A stretch of 21,599 bases of DNA from a virus. The stretch covers positions 1 through 21,599 of IMG/VR virus record IMGVR_UViG_3300025732_000311, one strand, 5' to 3'. Each line of letters begins with the position of its first letter. Positions within the stretch are counted from its first letter, which is position 1. This document shows positions 3 through 16,180 of this stretch, piece by piece. The notes under the pieces were generated by a model. It was given only the letters and a program-made list of their open reading frames with translations, did not search any database and had not been told where the DNA came from. Both the position numbers and the translations under genes were made by a program.

Positions 3-3000
3 ATCCTGAAGGAGAAGTTTGGGAATGACTTGTCTTGGATTGATCAGGCAGATCTGAACGCTGCCGCTTCGTTTGTCTTGGCGGGCAAGGAAGATCAACT
101 CCGAGCACTGATCGACTCCGGCCAGTTTGGCAAGTCAGGCCAAAACCTTGGTGCCGGTGAGTATGGCTTCTACAGGCCCAGAGACATCACGTCAGTGGAC
201 CGTGATTACGTTCCGCCTGAGGGCTACCGTATTGCAGGCCCCAACGAGCGCAACACCGCCACCGTTGCTTATGACGCAAACGGTATCCCTGTCTACGTTA
301 CGCAGTCATCCGGCGCCTCTGCACAGCGTCTGACCGCTGCCGAGCAGATTGCCCTTGACATCAAGGAAGGCCGCCTCAAAGAGGGCGACATCGAGATGTC
401 TGATCCCTTGACGGGTCAGATCTACGGCGCTGTTGCTGATCCCTACTCTCCAAGCAGCACTTTGGCTCGAGGCATCGTCGCTACGGCGAAGAAGGGTTTT
501 GGCGAGCAGATTGGTTACGTTGGCGACATCATCAACTCCGACAGGCTGCGTGAGATCGGCGGAGAGATGAATCTCAGTGGTCAGGCCATGACACCTGACA
601 TTGTTCGTCAAGGCCAAAAGAGCGTTGCTGACACTTTGACCAACACAGAGGGCGGCGCAAATAAGTTGATTGCCCTGTGGGAGTTGGCGAAGTCCAATCC
701 CGGCGCGATCGGAGCGGCCTTTGGTGATTGGGTTGGAACTGAGTTGTGGCAAGAACTTCTTCCCGTTGGGGGATCTGTTGCTGCGGGTAAGTTTGTCAAC
801 AACGCCGCCAAACTGGCCTTCTCTGAGAAGATTGCCGAGAAGATCGGCATGAGTTCTGCGGTTAGCGTTAACGCAGGTCTTGACGGTGCGGAGGCTTATG
901 CCGCCACTTACCGTGATGTCAAGGATCGCCTCCTTGCCATGGGTTTTAGCGAAGCACAGGCCAACACCAACGCAAACTTGGCCGGTATTGGTGCTGCAGT
1001 CGCCGAGATTGGGGCGTCTGTTATCGGCGAGGGGCCAATTGTTGCTGCTGCGACCAAAGGCATTCCGACGAAGTTCCTGCGTACAACGGTTACTGAGTCT
1101 CCATCTGAAGCGCTTGCAAGCGGAGCCCAAGAAACACTTACTCAACTTGCAACTCAACGTGCGGGTACTGGCCTTGATGTTGGCTCTATCCAAAACCAAG
1201 CAATCATCGGTGGACTTGTTGGCCCCGGAACAACTGGAGCGGTTGCCGGTGCGGCCAACTTGGGTGCAGCAGTTTCCGGCGGAACTGACGCGGCGGCCGC
1301 AACCGGAACAGGCGCAGGCAACGCTTCTGGCACGACCACTTCCGTCTCCGGCGGAACGGCAACGGTCACGAATGCTTCTGGTCAGACGACAGAAATCTCC
1401 GTTACGAACGACGACATCTCCAGTGGCAACCTGACAAACAACGTCACGACGGCTGTTGATTCTGGAGCGGATGCCGCCTCTGTGGTCAGTGCTGCGACAA
1501 ACGCCGCGGCAAACTCCGGCGCTGATACGAACGCAGCCACCAACGCTGCTGTCAATGCGGCCAACGCTGCAGGCGCTAACGTATCCGTGTCTGGCGGGGT
1601 TGTCACAAGCACCCAGACTCAAGGCGGCGTGACGACCAACTCTACGGTGGACAACAACACCGGAGTCAGCCAGTCCACCTCTACGAACGCAAATACGGGA
1701 ACGACTACTCAGTCTTCGTCTGATGCGAACACTGGGGTGTCTCAGTCCACGACCACGAACCAGAACACTGGCGCAACGACTCAGACGGCTACCGATACCA
1801 AGAGCGGCACGACTACGCAAACCGACTCCAGTGGCGGCGTCAACACGCAGACTCAAACCAACAACAACACTGGTACTCAGGTTCAGACTCAGACCGACAC
1901 CACTACCGGGACCACCAGTCAGACTCAGACGAACAACAACGTCACCACTCAGACCAACAGCAACGCAAACACTGGGGTCAACACTCAAACGGCTACTGAC
2001 TCCAACACCAATACGTCTACGACTACGCAGACGGATACGAACACGAACGTCACGACGCAGACTTCCACGAACAACAACACTGGAGTCACAACCGAGACGA
2101 CGACGGACGCGAACACGACAACGTCCACGACGACTGATACCAATACCGGAACGACGACTCAAACGTCCACCAACACCAATACCGGAGTTACGACTCAGAC
2201 TTCGACCAACTCCGGGGTGACGACGGAGACGCAGACGGATACCAATACGGGTGTTACGACTCAAACCTCCACCGATACGAATACGGGCGTCTCAACAACG
2301 ACCAATACGGACACCAACACTGGCGTCACGACTCAGACTCAAACCGACACCAACACTGGGACAACGACTGAGACTCAGACGGACACGAACGCGGGTGTTA
2401 CGACTCAGACTCAGACAGATACCAATACTGGTGTAACAACTCAGACGACAACCGACACCAACACGAACGTCACGACTCAGACGACGACGGATACGAATAC
2501 CAACGTCACGACTGAGACAAAGACTGATGTCAGCACTGGTGTCACAACGTCCACGTCCACCAACACCAATACTGGCGTCACGACAACCACCGAGACCAAC
2601 ACGACGACTGGTGTTACGACTCAAACCACGACCGACGACAACATCTCTGTCACGACGACGACTGACTCGAATACCGGGGTCACCAATAGCGTAGTGACGG
2701 ATCTGACAACAGGTACGCAAATCGTCGTTGACTCTCCGCCTGTTGACCCGGTCAAGCCTGTTCCGCCGGTCAAACCTTTGCCGCCGGTCACTCCGATTGA
2801 TCCCGTTCCGCCCGTCAAAACGGTGGACCCTGTTTCGCCTATCTCTACCGTCAACCCAGTCAATCCGGTAACTACGCCCCCGAAGACAAGCGTATCGTTC
2901 CCATCCGTTGCGGCTGCTTCTTTGCCTGCTTTTATCGGAGGCGGAGAACTGGGGCGTCTTGCACCTCAATTCCTAGAGTCCAAGGTCACCCAAGGCTATG

Positions 3001-3572
3001 TTGATCCTCTTGCCCAATTCCGTCAGGCACAAGAACAGTTTGAAAGAGAAGCCATGATGCAGAACATTGACCCTCGTCTGATGCAGATCCTGTCCCAACG
3101 AGCAGGCCAAGAAGAAGGGGCTCTTGGGCAGGCCGTCAATCAGCCTCACTACACCTACGGGCAGGAAGACTCGATCGACGACATCCTTGGTGGTCAGGCT
3201 GCCAACTATGCCAAGGGCGGGTACGTCCAACCCCTGATGGCAAAAGAGGGCGGGATGGCCTTACCCCTCTTGGCCAAGGAAGGCGGACTTCCGACGCACC
3301 GCGGTGGCCGAGAGGACTTTAAGCACGGCAAGCACGTCGCCGGAGAGGGTGACGGGCAGTCTGACGACATCCCGGCGTGGCTTGCAGACGGGGAGTTTGT
3401 CTTCCCGGCGGACGTAGTTTCTGCCCTTGGAAACGGCTCTACCAAGGCCGGAACTGACAAGTTGTACGAGATGATGCACAGCATCCGGGACAGGGCGCGG
3501 TCGAAAGGTCCAAAAGATCTTCCTCCACCCGCTTTGAAATCTCCCCTTGACTACCTAAAATCGAAGCGGTAA
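3..3572 (+). CDS. Large virion protein with Thr-rich repeat (5' partial)
   Basis: Probable structural or internal virion protein, judged from position and composition. The frame is open to the window edge: the nine codons before the TTG at 30 are in frame and lack a stop or good start, so the gene begins upstream. Residue numbers count from that TTG. The N-terminal 400 residues are Ala/Gly-rich with amphipathic stretches (about 220-420), as in internal virion or ejection proteins. Residues about 528-898 are degenerate 12-residue units such as TTQTQTDTNTGV. Residues 902-951 are a PVxPV proline-rich hinge. The C-terminus carries SDDIPAWLADGEFVFPADVV (1111-1130), a motif I recognise from virion proteins of environmental phages. 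Three more virion genes follow in the same direction. The exact virion role is not established from sequence; a fibre or tape-measure-like function is possible. Confidence 0.8.
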   Translation: MLKEKFGNDLSWIDQADLNAAASFVLAGKEDQLRALIDSGQFGKSGQNLGAGEYGFYRPRDITSVDRDYVPPEGYRIAGPNERNTATVAYDANGIPVYVTQSSGASAQRLTAAEQIALDIKEGRLKEGDIEMSDPLTGQIYGAVADPYSPSSTLARGIVATAKKGFGEQIGYVGDIINSDRLREIGGEMNLSGQAMTPDIVRQGQKSVADTLTNTEGGANKLIALWELAKSNPGAIGAAFGDWVGTELWQELLPVGGSVAAGKFVNNAAKLAFSEKIAEKIGMSSAVSVNAGLDGAEAYAATYRDVKDRLLAMGFSEAQANTNANLAGIGAAVAEIGASVIGEGPIVAAATKGIPTKFLRTTVTESPSEALASGAQETLTQLATQRAGTGLDVGSIQNQAIIGGLVGPGTTGAVAGAANLGAAVSGGTDAAAATGTGAGNASGTTTSVSGGTATVTNASGQTTEISVTNDDISSGNLTNNVTTAVDSGADAASVVSAATNAAANSGADTNAATNAAVNAANAAGANVSVSGGVVTSTQTQGGVTTNSTVDNNTGVSQSTSTNANTGTTTQSSSDANTGVSQSTTTNQNTGATTQTATDTKSGTTTQTDSSGGVNTQTQTNNNTGTQVQTQTDTTTGTTSQTQTNNNVTTQTNSNANTGVNTQTATDSNTNTSTTTQTDTNTNVTTQTSTNNNTGVTTETTTDANTTTSTTTDTNTGTTTQTSTNTNTGVTTQTSTNSGVTTETQTDTNTGVTTQTSTDTNTGVSTTTNTDTNTGVTTQTQTDTNTGTTTETQTDTNAGVTTQTQTDTNTGVTTQTTTDTNTNVTTQTTTDTNTNVTTETKTDVSTGVTTSTSTNTNTGVTTTTETNTTTGVTTQTTTDDNISVTTTTDSNTGVTNSVVTDLTTGTQIVVDSPPVDPVKPVPPVKPLPPVTPIDPVPPVKTVDPVSPISTVNPVNPVTTPPKTSVSFPSVAAASLPAFIGGGELGRLAPQFLESKVTQGYVDPLAQFRQAQEQFEREAMMQNIDPRLMQILSQRAGQEEGALGQAVNQPHYTYGQEDSIDDILGGQAANYAKGGYVQPLMAKEGGMALPLLAKEGGLPTHRGGREDFKHGKHVAGEGDGQSDDIPAWLADGEFVFPADVVSALGNGSTKAGTDKLYEMMHSIRDRARSKGPKDLPPPALKSPLDYLKSKR
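1611..2724 (+). repeat. Degenerate 36-bp (12-residue) coding repeat, Thr/Gln/Asn-rich
   Basis: Inside the first virion gene, about 1.1 kb is built from imperfect units encoding TTQTQTDTNTGV-like dodecapeptides. Threonine falls at every second position for long stretches (TQTDTNT). Synonymous codons vary between units (ACT, ACG, ACC, ACA), so the peptide is better conserved than the DNA, which argues for selection on the protein. The alternation fits beta strands with one Thr face, for example a beta-solenoid rod. Fold is inference. Confidence 0.85.
2733..2882 (+). repeat. Proline-rich PVxPV coding hinge
   Basis: Directly after the Thr-rich tract the same gene encodes about 50 residues of the pattern VDPVKPVPPVKPLPPV. 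This is a stiff, extended linker type that separates the repeat rod from the C-terminal domain. The DNA shows repeated CCGGTCAA/CCGGTCA words. It marks a domain boundary and not a separate gene. Confidence 0.8.
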
Positions 3573-10429: not shown

Positions 10430-10806
10430 GTTCTGCTCCTAATTGCTGCGGCGCATCGTTTTGCTTCTTCGTCCTCTCGGTTGTTGTCGCCCATCACCCG
10501 CGTCTCGCACACCTTCGCGCAAGCCTCTCGCTCGGCGGCTACGCCACTGGCATACCCGTCTTCCCATGCGCTTTGGGATTGAATCCGTGGATGGTCTAAC
10601 GCATTGCACAGGGTGTTCTCCCACGCGAGGAATGATCCAGATGGTTTCATTTCTGCCTTGACTCGCTCTCGCTCATGCTGCTCGACAAGGGCGGCGAAGC
10701 GTTTAAGGTCTTCCGCATCGCCTTCAACCGTCTCTCGCTCATTAGTCCAAACGAAAAATCCCGCCTCCCGCGCCAGTCGGATGATGGTGTCACGATCCAT
10801 GCTCAT
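10426..10806 (-). CDS. Conserved phage protein (DRDTIIRLAREAGF family)
   Basis: 126 residues; ATG at 10806 overlaps the upstream stop as ATGA (a second ATG at 10800 is possible). It opens with DRDTIIRLAREAGFFVW, has DLKRFAALVEQHERERVKAE in the middle and ends in EREACAKVCETRV...AIRSRT. I recognise this architecture from many Burkholderiales phages and prophages, where it is annotated only as hypothetical. Predicted mostly helical and cytoplasmic. No catalytic motif. Confidence 0.7.
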   Translation of the reverse strand: MSMDRDTIIRLAREAGFFVWTNERETVEGDAEDLKRFAALVEQHERERVKAEMKPSGSFLAWENTLCNALDHPRIQSQSAWEDGYASGVAAEREACAKVCETRVMGDNNREDEEAKRCAAAIRSRT

Positions 10807-11024
10807 ACTTCCTCCTGCTTGATGCCGTGTGCGCGTTCGATGGCACGGGCAAACTCAATGAAATCATCATGCTCTGCAAACGCAGGGTCAATCGGGGGCG
10901 CGTGTTTAACTGCAAGCAATTCAATTTGATGCTCAGTCAGCGGCTTGCGCTGTTGTGCTTCTGTATAAAGCGGCACAAGACCCTCCTTGCCTTTTATCGT
11001 TGTCCACATGACGGGTTCGCTCAT
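10803..11024 (-). CDS. Conserved phage protein ('RKPLT...FARAIERAHGI' family)
   Basis: 73 residues from the ATG at 11024, which overlaps the preceding tiny gene's stop as ATGA and follows a GGGGG ribosome-like site. The GTG at 11036 is less likely. The core QRKPLTEHQIELLAVKH and the C-terminal FIEFARAIERAHGIKQEE define a module that recurs in the protein at 12326 (RQRKPLTEPELHEI, FVRAIERAHGI), so the operon carries two diverged copies. The role of the module is unknown. Confidence 0.72.
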   Translation of the reverse strand: MSEPVMWTTIKGKEGLVPLYTEAQQRKPLTEHQIELLAVKHAPPIDPAFAEHDDFIEFARAIERAHGIKQEEV

Positions 11025-11140
11025 AGCATCCCCCACAGGTAGCTAACCAACACCCCGACCAACACGAAAGGCCCGAGAAAGATCACAAGCAAGATGGCAA
11101 GTGCCCATGCAGTAGCAAGCCAATCGGTAAGCCATCTCAT
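11021..11140 (-). CDS. Single-span small membrane protein (39 aa)
   Basis: Read directly from the sequence: ATG at 11140 overlaps the transporter gene's stop as ATGA, and its own stop TGA overlaps the next gene's ATG as ATGA. The peptide (start RWLTDWLATAWALAILLVIF) is hydrophobic from about residue 9 to 34 and ends YLWGML, a single transmembrane helix. The perfect junctions on both sides are the main argument that it is translated. It could be an accessory subunit of the adjacent transporter; this is speculative. Confidence 0.68.
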   Translation of the reverse strand: MRWLTDWLATAWALAILLVIFLGPFVLVGVLVSYLWGML

Positions 11141-11616
11141 GCCTTCTCCTTTACTTTTGAAAAGACATAAGACCAAACAAAGCCACCGCCAACTTTTGCC
11201 GCAAACTGCATCAGCACGATGTGAGGCATCAGAGAACTAAATGCGATAGTCGGGAAGATTAACGAATCTACTGCAGCACCGGCCACATTTGACTTGTTGG
11301 CCTTGGCAAACCAAGTTCCCTTGGCCTTGGTAAACACCGACCAATCCACAAAGGCGGCTCCGGTGAACGCAACTGCTGAGGCAATCGCAATCATGTGCGC
11401 TGATGGGTTGGCGAGGTAGGTAATCAACCCTGATGCGACTATCAGGCATAGCATCTGAACCTGATTCAGTCGCGTCTGCAACCAATCGCGCAGTGTCAGG
11501 TCAAGGCCAATCAAGAAAAAAGCATTGATAGGGCTTACCCACGGCCCAAATGCGGCTATGGTCAGGTTGGCAACCGTCATAGCGACGGCATAGATCACGA
11601 TTGCAATGTAAAGCAC
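11137..11616 (-). CDS. VUT/YhhQ-family transporter (putative 7-deazaguanine precursor importer)
   Basis: 159 residues with about six hydrophobic spans (roughly 2-21, 27-42, 53-69, 73-92, 113-131, 133-152). Family marks are SPINAFFLIGLDLTLRDWL (28-46), VAGAAVDSLIFPTIAF (111-126) and QFAAKVGGGFVWS (137-149), which match the VUT (COG1738) family. The E. coli member YhhQ imports queuosine precursors preQ0/preQ1. The start is GTG at 11616 with AGGAGG four bases upstream, within the end of the DpdA-like gene (22-base overlap). It is shorter than YhhQ (about 220 residues) but typical of phage members. Predicted to act in the inner membrane and feed the DpdA-like enzyme. Substrate is inferred from family and neighbour. 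Confidence 0.82.
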   Translation of the reverse strand: MLYIAIVIYAVAMTVANLTIAAFGPWVSPINAFFLIGLDLTLRDWLQTRLNQVQMLCLIVASGLITYLANPSAHMIAIASAVAFTGAAFVDWSVFTKAKGTWFAKANKSNVAGAAVDSLIFPTIAFSSLMPHIVLMQFAAKVGGGFVWSYVFSKVKEKA

Positions 11617-12329
11617 AGTTCCTCCTGTGTTTCAATGAATGCCGGTGCTGAGTTGTTTGCCTCAATACGCTCGGCAATGACTTCTGCGCGTTGCGCCACG
11701 GTCGGCGGCAGATACGACCCAAACCGACTAAGCGAACCCGAATTGACTGCCGCATTGGTGGAATCGGCAGAGGACAAGGGTAGGCGCGTGAAGATGTCAG
11801 GATCAAGCATCCGAAGCCCATGCAACTTGCAAAATGGTCGGCCTTGCTCGTCGCACACGGCCTTCATTGCTTGCTTCATCCTGCCCCACCATTGCGGTGT
11901 GCCTACCGAAGAAAACTCCCCGCTAGACCCCAAAGCAACCGTTCTGAACCGCCTTGCCAACCAAGTTAGCCTCGGCGTGGGCTCATGCATATGCCACACG
12001 GGAACACCGTTCAGCACCTTCGGCCATCTCTCAACTAGCGCATCGTTTTCTTGAGCCGTACCGTCGATCACATCAGGAATCAGGGCAAAGTCAAAGCCGG
12101 GGTGTCGATGCCACTCTGCCACCCACTTGATATAACCATCGACATCAAGTTTGCCGCCTTGCTTCCACACGGTAAACGCGCCGTTGTCCAAGCAAAATGA
12201 CTGGCAAACTTCCGCAACGATGCCTATGTCATCCTGATAACTAAATGGCACAAGGGCATGGCGACCCGCCAAGAACCTAGCCGCATCCTTGCGCGGACCA
12301 CCGATGGGGGTTCCGTGGTAGTGAATCAT
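11595..12329 (-). CDS. dpdA: DpdA-like DNA guanine transglycosylase (TGT superfamily)
   Basis: 244 residues. I recognise the phage DpdA-type sequence, related to tRNA-guanine transglycosylase, which exchanges guanine in DNA for a 7-deazaguanine base. Visible family marks are IHYHGTPIGG (2-11), CLDNGAFTVW (46-55, Asp48), LIPDVIDG (83-90), VWHMHEP (111-117), ALGSSGE (132-138), CKLHGLRMLD (167-176) and SADST (187-191, Asp189). Asp48 and Asp189 are the likely catalytic pair by analogy to TGT. ATG overlaps the upstream stop as ATGA. The VUT/YhhQ-like transporter starts inside its last codons. No preQ0 synthesis gene (queC/D/E, folE) is visible, which suggests base salvage. Which base is inserted cannot be read from sequence. 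A tRNA substrate is a less likely alternative. Confidence 0.8.
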   Translation of the reverse strand: MIHYHGTPIGGPRKDAARFLAGRHALVPFSYQDDIGIVAEVCQSFCLDNGAFTVWKQGGKLDVDGYIKWVAEWHRHPGFDFALIPDVIDGTAQENDALVERWPKVLNGVPVWHMHEPTPRLTWLARRFRTVALGSSGEFSSVGTPQWWGRMKQAMKAVCDEQGRPFCKLHGLRMLDPDIFTRLPLSSADSTNAAVNSGSLSRFGSYLPPTVAQRAEVIAERIEANNSAPAFIETQEELCFTLQS

Positions 12330-12673
12330 GCCTCGCCCCCAATCCCGTGTGCGCGTTCGATGGCTCTGACAAATTCAAGCACATCTTCGTACTCCCAGTG
12401 CTGCCCGGGCGCAGGCCATGTCGGATTAATCTCGTGCAATTCAGGCTCAGTCAGCGGCTTTCGCTGCCTCGGAGCGTGAACCATGAGATTGCCTTCCCAC
12501 ACAGCGCCGCAGACGCAGGTCACAGTGTTTTGCTCAGGCTCCTGCTCAGGCTCCGCAAGCGCGGTGCGGAGGGCTTCTCTGGCTCTTAATACTTCTTGCC
12601 TGTCTTTTGCCAAGGGCGTTGTCGCAACTTCCAACGCCTCAAGCGCCTGCTGCGCTGCTTCTCGTAGGCTCAT
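12326..12673 (-). CDS. Conserved phage protein ('LREAAQQALEALE...RAIERAHGI' family)
   Basis: 115 residues; ATG overlaps the upstream stop as ATGA. The N-terminal helix SLREAAQQALEALEVATTPL and REALRTALAEPEQEPEQ form one module, and RQRKPLTEPELHEI plus FVRAIERAHGIGGE a second one shared with the protein at 10803. Between them lies CVCGAVWEG, a CxC that could contribute to metal binding. Combinations of these modules are common in Burkholderiales phages and have no known function. It sits just before the DpdA-like gene. Confidence 0.7.
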   Translation of the reverse strand: MSLREAAQQALEALEVATTPLAKDRQEVLRAREALRTALAEPEQEPEQNTVTCVCGAVWEGNLMVHAPRQRKPLTEPELHEINPTWPAPGQHWEYEDVLEFVRAIERAHGIGGEA

Positions 12674-12980: not shown

Positions 12981-13181
12981 ATGAACCTCAAACAATACTT
13001 CGACGAAGAGCCCATAGGCGCCATCAAGGAGATGGCCGAGTACCTAGGGGTGACGCAGTCATGGATGTCCTTGCTGATCCACGAGCGCAGGAAGCCCTCT
13101 GCGGCATTGTCCAAGCGTATCGAGGACGCCACGCAAGGGCTCGTGACGCGCAGGGAGTTGCGCCCGGATCTTTTCCTGTAG
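12981..13181 (+). CDS. Cro/YdaS-like HTH repressor
   Basis: 66 residues. The sequence fits the small Cro/YdaS-type helix-turn-helix family: GAIKEMAEYLGVTQSWMSLL (residues 13-32, with AEYLGVTQSWMSLLIHERR as helix 2-turn-recognition helix), basic RRKPSAALSKRIEDAT, and the family ending GLVTRRELRPDLF. Members bind operator DNA as dimers and switch early transcription, or are Cro-like or antitoxin-like regulators. It is the first rightward gene and faces the leftward operon across a palindromic operator, which fits a Cro/repressor role. No second, larger CI-type repressor and no integrase are present in the window, so lysogeny is not supported or excluded. Confidence 0.82.
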   Translation: MNLKQYFDEEPIGAIKEMAEYLGVTQSWMSLLIHERRKPSAALSKRIEDATQGLVTRRELRPDLFL

Positions 13182-15622: not shown

Positions 15623-15683
15623 GAAGAGAAGGGGGCCAGACGCACTGGCCGATTTGAAGCAAAGAATGAACAAGGTGAAATGA
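15456..15683 (+). CDS. Small phage protein, overlapping frame B (CEAR family)
   Basis: 75 residues if started at the ATG at 15456; a GTG at 15411 and an ATG at 15513 are alternatives. The segment LPPPEIWEHMRNCEARHWVK then WWQKTSQDIEKRRGPDALAD LKQRM resembles the phage family with 'CEAR.wl...R..YL......RG..A...L...M'. Third-position GC by eye is higher in this frame than in the frame starting at 15404, supporting that it is coding. It overlaps the frame A gene by 167 bases. Function unknown. Confidence 0.6.
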   Translation: MPLQIKFETLLPPPEIWEHMRNCEARHWVKRFNEIKSEGGFTAARDWWQKTSQDIEKRRGPDALADLKQRMNKVK

Positions 15684-16180
15684 TGGACGTTTTGACTGAA
15701 GCAGGTAAGAAGACTTTGATTGATGAAAAGAGGGCTCAGGAGATATTCGAGAGCAACTACCCTCGAATGGTATACGCCCACACGCCGAAGAACAAACCGG
15801 CTGACGTTGATTCGGTGCTCATTGAGGGCGGTGAGATCTGCGCTGTCGTTGAGACCAAGTGCCGGTACGACATGGATCTGGACAAGTTCAACAAGCAATA
15901 CGGCAGCGTGTGGTTGGTGACCATGAGCAAGATCGAAAAGGGTCGTGCGATGTCAGACGCCCTTTGTGTGCCGTTCGTTGGGTTCTTGTATCTCAAACAG
16001 TCCGATGTGCTTCTGGTGCAGAAGATCTATGAGGGCGGAACGTACTTTCCAAAAATCGTGATTGAAAACACGATCACTCAAAGAACCGTCAACGGGGGTC
16101 ATGTCGAAAGGACCAATGCGTACATCGACATGGCAGGTGCAAAACTTCTGAGGATGAAAAATGAGAGTGGTTGGAATTGA
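15680..16180 (+). CDS. PD-(D/E)XK-like nuclease candidate
   Basis: 166 residues; the ATG at 15680 overlaps the upstream stop as ATGATG (a second ATG at 15683 is equally possible). Residues 40-62 read ADVDSVLIEGGEICAVVETK, giving Asp44 and the E-x-K pair Glu58/Lys60, spaced as in small PD-(D/E)XK nucleases. The next segment CRYDMDLDKF and strands around 75-110 (GSVWLVTMSKI; VGFLYLKQSDVLLVQ) fit the alpha/beta core. The neighbouring RuvC-like resolvase suggests a role in branched DNA or recombination. Catalytic activity and target are not certain. Confidence 0.62.
   Translation: MMDVLTEAGKKTLIDEKRAQEIFESNYPRMVYAHTPKNKPADVDSVLIEGGEICAVVETKCRYDMDLDKFNKQYGSVWLVTMSKIEKGRAMSDALCVPFVGFLYLKQSDVLLVQKIYEGGTYFPKIVIENTITQRTVNGGHVERTNAYIDMAGAKLLRMKNESGWN

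What the first reader, a model, noticed from the sequence alone, without database searches (positions are those of the whole stretch)
11137..12329. Compact salvage-type 7-deazaguanine DNA modification cassette (DpdA-like enzyme plus VUT transporter)
Seen: a TGT-like protein with CLDNGAF, IPDVIDG, WHMHE and SADST motifs, overlapped by 22 bases by a VUT/YhhQ-like membrane protein with a strong AGGAGG/GTG start. Known: DpdA proteins place 7-deazaguanines in DNA, phages use this against restriction, and YhhQ imports queuosine precursors. Inference: the phage modifies its DNA by importing the base and not making it, since no queC/D/E/folE or other base-tailoring gene is in the window. The 39-residue membrane peptide coupled to the transporter could be a third component.
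Basis: partly seen in the sequence, partly recalled or inferred. Interest (0 to 1): 0.85.

Follow-up and report, generated by a model that had tools for sequence, protein, structure and literature searches.

The report
Mobile two-gene phage DNA-base salvage cassette
Two overlapping phage genes encode an enzyme that probably swaps a modified guanine into the phage's DNA and a membrane transporter that probably imports that modified base; the pair moves between unrelated phages as one unit, but the chemistry itself is already known from other phages.

Summary
The window (21.6 kb phage contig fragment) encodes a 244-aa TGT-type protein overlapped by 22 nt by a 159-aa VUT transporter. The enzyme falls in PHROG 887, the family of phage 9g, 7-11 and MED16 DpdA. 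It keeps both catalytic Asps (D48, D189) and the DpdA histidine (H170 = 9g H196), and its model matches TGT barrels best. The membrane protein passes the Pfam Vut_1 cut-off and models as a six-helix ECF-S-like transporter. QueC and QueD are absent from the window; QueC, QueD, QueF and FolE are absent from cassette-bearing relatives. New here: in a transporter-only search, all 79 phage loci carry an adjacent TGT-type gene, in either order. An otherwise unrelated 38.5-kb phage contig shares only this 1,192-bp stretch, from dpdA start codon to VUT stop codon, under strong purifying selection. So the pair is a genuine mobile cassette; the 39-residue peptide is not part of it. 'Import, not synthesis' fits the phage, but sampled hosts of related prophages all have QueC, so the host may also supply base. 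DpdA-only phages and phage preQ0 transporters are published; DNA modification here is untested.

The parts
11595..12329 (-). dpdA-like gene, 244 aa; catalytic Asp48 (CLDNGAF) and Asp189 (SADST), His170 (LHG; equals phage 9g DpdA His196), Asp86 (IPDVIDG)
   Evidence: PHROG 887 E 6.3e-69, the family that also holds 9g, 7-11 and MED16 DpdA; residue equivalences; D48, H170 and D189 invariant in 37 homologues; model closest to archaeal TGT 1iq8, Z 13.2
11137..11616 (-). VUT/YhhQ-like queuosine-precursor transporter, 159 aa, six transmembrane helices; overlaps dpdA by 22 nt
   Evidence: PF02592 37.5 bits over cut-off 27.2, all 33 non-redundant homologues hit PF02592; ECF S-component-like model
11620..11625 (-). 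AGGAGG Shine-Dalgarno-like site, 3 nt before the GTG start of VUT, inside the dpdA coding region
   Evidence: sequence
11137..12328 (-). mobile unit: the only stretch shared with an unrelated 38.5-kb phage contig (G001), 90.5% identical, from dpdA start codon to VUT stop codon; same limits in L007 and L008
   Evidence: blastn and all-ORF blastp
11021..11140 (-). 39-residue hydrophobic ORF coupled to VUT by ATGA; not part of the cassette
   Evidence: absent next to VUT in other lineages; in L017-L019 a homologue lies about 8 kb away on the other strand
12342..12394 (-). upstream copy of a 53-nt diverged direct repeat bracketing the cassette, at the 3' end of ORF 12673..12326
   Evidence: 79% identity, spacing 1520
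10822..10874 (-). downstream copy of the same repeat, at the 3' end of ORF 11036..10803; the two ORFs' C-termini are 50% identical
   Evidence: blastp E 1.3e-10

Best explanation
A mobile two-gene cassette for 7-deazaguanine modification of phage DNA by salvage. The VUT protein sits in the host inner membrane as a solitary S-component-like carrier and brings in a queuosine precursor (preQ0 or preQ1). The DpdA-type transglycosylase uses an Asp pair to cut selected guanines out of phage DNA and put the 7-deazaguanine base in their place, probably at low density, which hinders some restriction enzymes. The phage makes no precursor itself; the base comes from outside and, where the host has queDEC, also from the host pool. 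Shown here: gene content, family, catalytic residues, predicted folds, linkage, mobility, purifying selection, absence of synthesis genes. Inferred from relatives: DNA as substrate, identity of the base, direction of transport, protection from restriction.
For: Enzyme: PHROG 887, the same family as 9g (E 2e-98), 7-11 and MED16 DpdA; single-sequence matches to MED16 3.7e-41, 7-11 9.9e-25, 9g 1.3e-7; D48=D72, H170=H196, D189=D215 of 9g; model best matched by TGTs, Z 13.2 at 223 residues, 3.9 A. MED16 and 7-11 carry dADG with dpdA as the only pathway gene (PMC8306585, PMC6884629). Transporter: PF02592 in 33 of 33, ECF S-component fold Z 9-11; homologues inside queE-queC-VUT-queD-folE-dpdA of slur01 and yong3 and in queC-VUT and queC-VUT-queD operons of Burkholderiales. 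Pairing: in the VUT-only scan 76 of 79 loci have a neighbouring PHROG 887 gene and the other 3 a divergent TGT-like gene. Mobility. Selection. No QueC, QueD, QueF or FolE in cassette phages, with slur01 and yong3 as positive controls in the QueD and FolE searches; no QueC or QueD in the window.
Against: No nucleoside data were found for any phage with this pair. In the two dpdA-only phages measured, modification is very low (0.02% and 0.13% of G), and MED16 DNA was still cut by most enzymes tested, so protection may be weak. All 5 bacterial genomes with a related cassette encode QueC, so import is not strictly needed there. The match to E. coli YhhQ is weak (hhalign probability 18%) and the equivalog models TIGR00697 and NF008406 are hit far below cut-off. 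mEp021 has a VUT of the same PHROG with no detectable DpdA.
Confidence: 0.68

Rival explanations
1. DpdA does modify phage DNA, but the base comes mainly from the host's own preQ0 pool; the transporter only tops up supply, acts in the lysogen, or serves the host's tRNA queuosine.
For: 5 of 5 genomes with a related D+V locus have QueC; many close DpdA homologues have no VUT (56 of the loci examined); dpdA-only phages 7-11 and MED16 are modified although no transporter gene was found near their dpdA.
Against: The phage keeps VUT under purifying selection (dN/dS 0.071) and moves it together with dpdA.
Confidence: 0.18
2. The TGT-like enzyme modifies tRNA, and the pair raises queuosine in host tRNA during infection.
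For: Fold and catalytic residues are shared with tRNA TGT; VUT/YhhQ normally serves tRNA queuosine.
Against: No Pfam TGT hit at E up to 1; the protein ends about 55 residues after the catalytic Asp with a single Cys there, so the tRNA-TGT zinc site is missing; its family contains enzymes shown to act on DNA, and 9g DpdA did not complement E. coli tgt.
Confidence: 0.07
3. The enzyme attaches a deazapurine to a protein, like the TGT-like Cap10 of type IV CBASS.
For: Cap10 (9ntn) is among the best structural matches, Z 12.8, tied with TGTs.
Against: No QueC-like partner in the record or in related records; sequence family is DpdA; Cap10 shares the general TGT fold only.
Confidence: 0.03

Closest known systems
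DpdA-only phages (group 3 of Hutinet et al. 2019, PMC6884629; Salmonella phage 7-11, Pantoea phage MED16)
   Same: DpdA of the same PHROG, no preQ0-synthesis genes, expected to use precursor they do not make
   Different: 7-11 and MED16 carry no detected VUT in the stretches read; here a transporter is coupled to dpdA and travels with it
Seuratvirus and EC151-type phages (PMC8310023; slur01, yong3)
   Same: phage-encoded preQ0 transporter linked to dpdA
   Different: they also carry folE, queD, queE, queC; this cassette has none
Pectobacterium phage PEAT2, Acinetobacter phage AB3P2, Escherichia phage Lg3, Klebsiella phage Opt-79, Pseudanabaena phage Pam5 (deposited genomes)
   Same: VUT and DpdA-type genes next to or near each other, mostly unannotated
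   Different: order reversed (VUT first) in PEAT2, Lg3, Opt-79; sequence identity of the transporter below 47%
YhhQ / QPTR (COG1738, PF02592)
   Same: Pfam Vut_1 family, six helices, link to Q biosynthesis operons
   Different: 159 aa instead of 221; below the NCBIfam equivalog cut-offs; closer to short transporters in Burkholderiales queC operons

Membership tests
phage DpdA (7-deazaguanine DNA transglycosylase) | belongs to the sequence family of experimentally tested phage DpdA | tested here: met
   PHROG 887 E 6.3e-69; 9g, 7-11, MED16 DpdA in the same PHROG
phage DpdA (7-deazaguanine DNA transglycosylase) | TGT catalytic Asp pair | tested here: met
   D48 and D189 invariant in 37 homologues, aligned to 9g D72 and D215
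phage DpdA (7-deazaguanine DNA transglycosylase) | conserved histidine at position 196 of 9g DpdA (present in DpdA, absent in DpdA2; PMC6884629) | tested here: met
   window H170 aligns to 9g H196
phage DpdA (7-deazaguanine DNA transglycosylase) | TGT-type barrel fold | tested here: met
   model pLDDT 79; best VIA-align match archaeal TGT 1iq8 Z 13.2, most of the 50 rows are TGTs; Foldseek alone is weak (1j2b E 0.017)
phage DpdA (7-deazaguanine DNA transglycosylase) | match to Pfam PF23859 (DpdA) | tested here: not met
   no hit; the tested 9g DpdA also has no hit, so this model does not cover the 9g branch and is not a fair criterion
phage DpdA (7-deazaguanine DNA transglycosylase) | inserts 7-deazaguanine into DNA | not testable with these tools
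   needs nucleoside mass spectrometry
VUT / YhhQ transporter family (PF02592, COG1738) | Pfam gathering score | tested here: met
   37.5 bits against 27.2; 33 of 33 homologues hit
VUT / YhhQ transporter family (PF02592, COG1738) | NCBIfam equivalog cut-offs for queuosine precursor transporter (TIGR00697, NF008406) | tested here: not met
   15.9 of 50.95 and 18.2 of 252 bits; so a family member, not a proven equivalog
VUT / YhhQ transporter family (PF02592, COG1738) | transports preQ0 or preQ1 | not testable with these tools
   only indirect: linkage to queC, queD and dpdA
tRNA-guanine transglycosylase | Pfam TGT match and C-terminal zinc site | tested here: not met
   no Pfam TGT hit at E up to 1; one Cys after D189 in the translation
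phages with own preQ0 synthesis (groups 1 and 2 of PMC6884629) | FolE, QueD, QueE, QueC encoded | tested here: not met
   no QueC or QueD in the window; no QueC, QueD, QueF, FolE in the cassette-bearing records searched; QueE not searched; the window is a fragment

The most novel reading that the evidence does not exclude
The transporter plus transglycosylase pair is a distinct, portable 'import and insert' module for DNA base modification. It is exchanged gene-precisely between unrelated phages, has been assembled or rearranged several times in both gene orders, and recruits at least three TGT families (PHROG 887, PHROG 1279/Pfam DpdA, and the unannotated PHROG 15826, which would be a new DpdA subfamily). 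Phage DNA modification would then depend on free queuosine precursors in the environment.
Probability: 0.4. Interest if true: 0.6.

Novelty: new member of a known kind. Interest (0 to 1): 0.42.

Why it matters
The phages in which dpdA is the only known gene of the pathway form the largest published group, yet the source of their modified base is unexplained. A transporter partner that travels with dpdA gives a concrete, testable answer for part of that group: uptake. It would tie phage resistance to restriction to the supply of a micronutrient outside the cell. It also gives a handle (phage-type VUT) for finding unrecognised DNA-modifying TGT families.

Tried and rejected
The 39-residue peptide as a component: rejected. 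It lies next to VUT only in near-identical contigs; a small hydrophobic ORF follows VUT in just 2 of 36 other loci, with unrelated sequences; and the mobile unit ends at the VUT stop codon. Host deficiency as the reason for the transporter: 5 of 5 genomes with a related D+V locus have QueC, so this simple idea fails in the sample. Direct sequence match of either protein to solved structures: none, alone or as profile. hhalign of the DpdA profile with a single E. coli TGT sequence aligned only the DSGGF region. Megablast of the window against phage records found nothing. Consensus promoter and terminator scans found no more than shuffled sequence. No tRNA in the window. A DNA methyltransferase-like gene next to VUT in mEp021 was considered as an alternative partner but not pursued. 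Cui et al. 2023 (further DpdA subfamilies) is known to me from memory only and is not in the paper library.

Full report
What is there. On the minus strand, 12329..11595 encodes a 244-residue protein and 11616..11137 a 159-residue one; they share 22 nt. The second starts with GTG behind AGGAGG at a short spacing of 3 nt. The genes upstream and downstream are joined by ATGA overlaps (12329/12326, 11140/11137, 11024/11021), so the pair sits in a tightly packed operon that runs left from a divergent control region. On the other side of that region a small repressor-like gene (12981-13181) starts a replication operon. The record is a 21.6-kb virus contig, probably a fragment.

The enzyme. The 244-residue protein belongs to PHROG 887 (E 6.3e-69). 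The experimentally studied DpdA proteins of phage 9g, Salmonella phage 7-11 and Pantoea phage MED16 fall in the same PHROG. With the window protein alone as query the E-values are 3.7e-41 (MED16), 9.9e-25 (7-11) and 1.3e-7 (9g). D48, H170 and D189 are invariant in 37 homologues and align with 9g D72, H196 and D215; His196 is the residue named as conserved in DpdA and missing in DpdA2 (PMC6884629). The AlphaFold model (pLDDT 79, pTM 0.78) matches archaeal TGT best (1iq8, Z 13.2, 223 residues, 3.9 A), and most of the other best rows are TGTs; Cap10, a TGT-like protein of CBASS, scores the same (Z 12.8). Foldseek alone ranked other barrels first, with TGT at E 0.017. There is no Pfam hit; 9g DpdA has none either. 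The protein ends 55 residues after D189 and lacks the zinc site of tRNA TGT.

The transporter. The 159-residue protein passes the Pfam Vut_1 cut-off (37.5 against 27.2 bits), as do all 33 non-redundant homologues. It falls below the narrower NCBIfam models for queuosine precursor transporters and matches E. coli YhhQ only weakly. Its model has six helices (pLDDT 89), and ECF S-components (RibU, BioY, ThiT, PanT and others) fill its best structural matches, Z 9 to 11; for helical proteins such Z values are suggestive, not proof. Two independent contexts tie the family to 7-deazaguanines. In Seuratvirus slur01 and yong3 a homologue sits inside queE-queC-VUT-queD-folE-dpdA. In Burkholderiales genomes about 60% identical relatives sit directly behind queC, and in one case before a queD-like gene.

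The pairing. A scan of IMG/VR with the transporter alone, blind to the enzyme, gave 79 loci. In 76 of them a PHROG 887-type gene lies on the same strand within about 0.5 kb. The three others (L148, L153, L154) have a different TGT-like gene directly before VUT: PHROG 1279 with a Pfam DpdA match in L148 and PHROG 15826, of unknown function, in L153 and L154. PHROG 15826 resembles the DpdA profile (hhalign probability 91%, E 1e-6, keeping DNGAF, PDV and ADS). Both gene orders occur, and a tree of 50 DpdA proteins needs at least 5 changes for the VUT-first order on well-supported branches (quick tree). The reverse does not hold: many DpdA genes have no VUT. The sample consists of relatives with about 49% or more identity; more distant VUT genes (mEp021, Vibrio Queuovirinae) are not next to a DpdA.

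The pair moves as a unit. The window and a 38.5-kb virus contig (G001) share one stretch only, 11137-12328, 90.5% identical, which runs from the dpdA start codon to the VUT stop codon. No other DNA match (E below 1e-3) and no ORF match outside that stretch (E below 1e-6) exists between them. L007 and L008 show the same limits; identity drops to background in the first 60 bases on either side. Between window and G001 dN/dS is 0.012 for dpdA (dS 0.54) and 0.071 for VUT (dS 0.42), so both proteins are maintained. In L016-L018 the cassette sits at another place of the genome, beside a homologue of the window's 16701-17051 gene. In the window it is bracketed by a diverged 53-nt direct repeat (79%) at the ends of two paralogous small genes, which may have helped its exchange (inference).

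The peptide. The 39-residue hydrophobic ORF is outside the mobile unit, and other lineages have nothing like it behind VUT. In L017-L019 a homologue lies about 8 kb away on the other strand. It is not a third component.

Source of the base. QueC and QueD are absent from the window. QueC was absent from all 25 VUT-bearing records searched (8 of them isolate genomes deposited as complete); QueD, QueF and FolE were absent from the 24 cassette or mEp021 records searched, while slur01 and yong3 rang in the QueD and FolE searches. QueE was not searched. So these phages do not make preQ0. The five bacterial genomes or MAGs in which a related D+V locus was found all encode QueC, so host-made preQ0 is available as well; 'imported and not made' holds for the phage, not necessarily for the infected cell.

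Mechanism. Most likely VUT imports a queuosine precursor and DpdA exchanges it for guanine in phage DNA. Direct evidence in the family: dADG in 7-11 (0.02% of G) and MED16 (0.13% of G), both with dpdA as their only known pathway gene (PMC6884629, PMC8306585). At those levels MED16 DNA was cut by most enzymes tested, so protection could be partial or site-specific, and a transporter could be the means to higher density; this is untested.

Known or new. Hutinet et al. 2019 described dpdA-only phages, suggested host synthesis or uptake of precursor, and noted YhhQ homologues in some phages without correlation to any group. EC151 was reported with dpdA plus a preQ0 transporter in a full pathway. 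PEAT2 and others carry the pair in deposited records. What I did not find described is the near-obligate pairing of this short VUT family with TGT-type genes and its gene-precise mobility; the paper library is incomplete. I file it as a new member of a known kind.

Noticed in passing
L153:4318-4989, L154:4146-4763, L188:990-1445: A TGT-like family of unknown function (PHROG 15826 in L153 and L154; similar in L188) lies directly before a phage-type VUT; it keeps DNGAF, PDV and DS motifs and may be an unrecognised DpdA subfamily.
   Followed up: partly
L160 (Enterobacteria phage mEp021), 4956-6223: A VUT of the same PHROG with no detectable DpdA in the genome and a PHROG 757 'DNA methyltransferase' gene overlapping its end; six more records carry the same VUT. 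The partner reaction of this VUT is unexplained.
   Followed up: partly
L172:1243-2519, L175, L178:5245-7622: Burkholderiales genomes carry the short VUT directly behind queC (and before a queD-like gene in L178), i.e. a cellular operon with both synthesis and transport.
   Followed up: partly
window 10822-10874 and 12342-12394: Diverged direct repeat at the ends of two paralogous small genes brackets the cassette and the 39-residue ORF.
   Followed up: partly
window 30-3572: 1180-residue ORF with a long Thr/Asn/Gln/Ser-rich repetitive middle (TNTGVTTQT-like units) and no PHROG match, just before an ejection-protein-like gene.
   Followed up: no
L002 (Pseudomonas phage Epa33) 8001-10830: The close VUT-less DpdA homologue (68% identical) is followed directly by a C5-cytosine DNA methylase gene.
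   Followed up: no
window 15680-16180: Protein with a sub-threshold match to a phage PDDEXK endonuclease family (PF24579, 22.4 of 25 bits).
   Followed up: no
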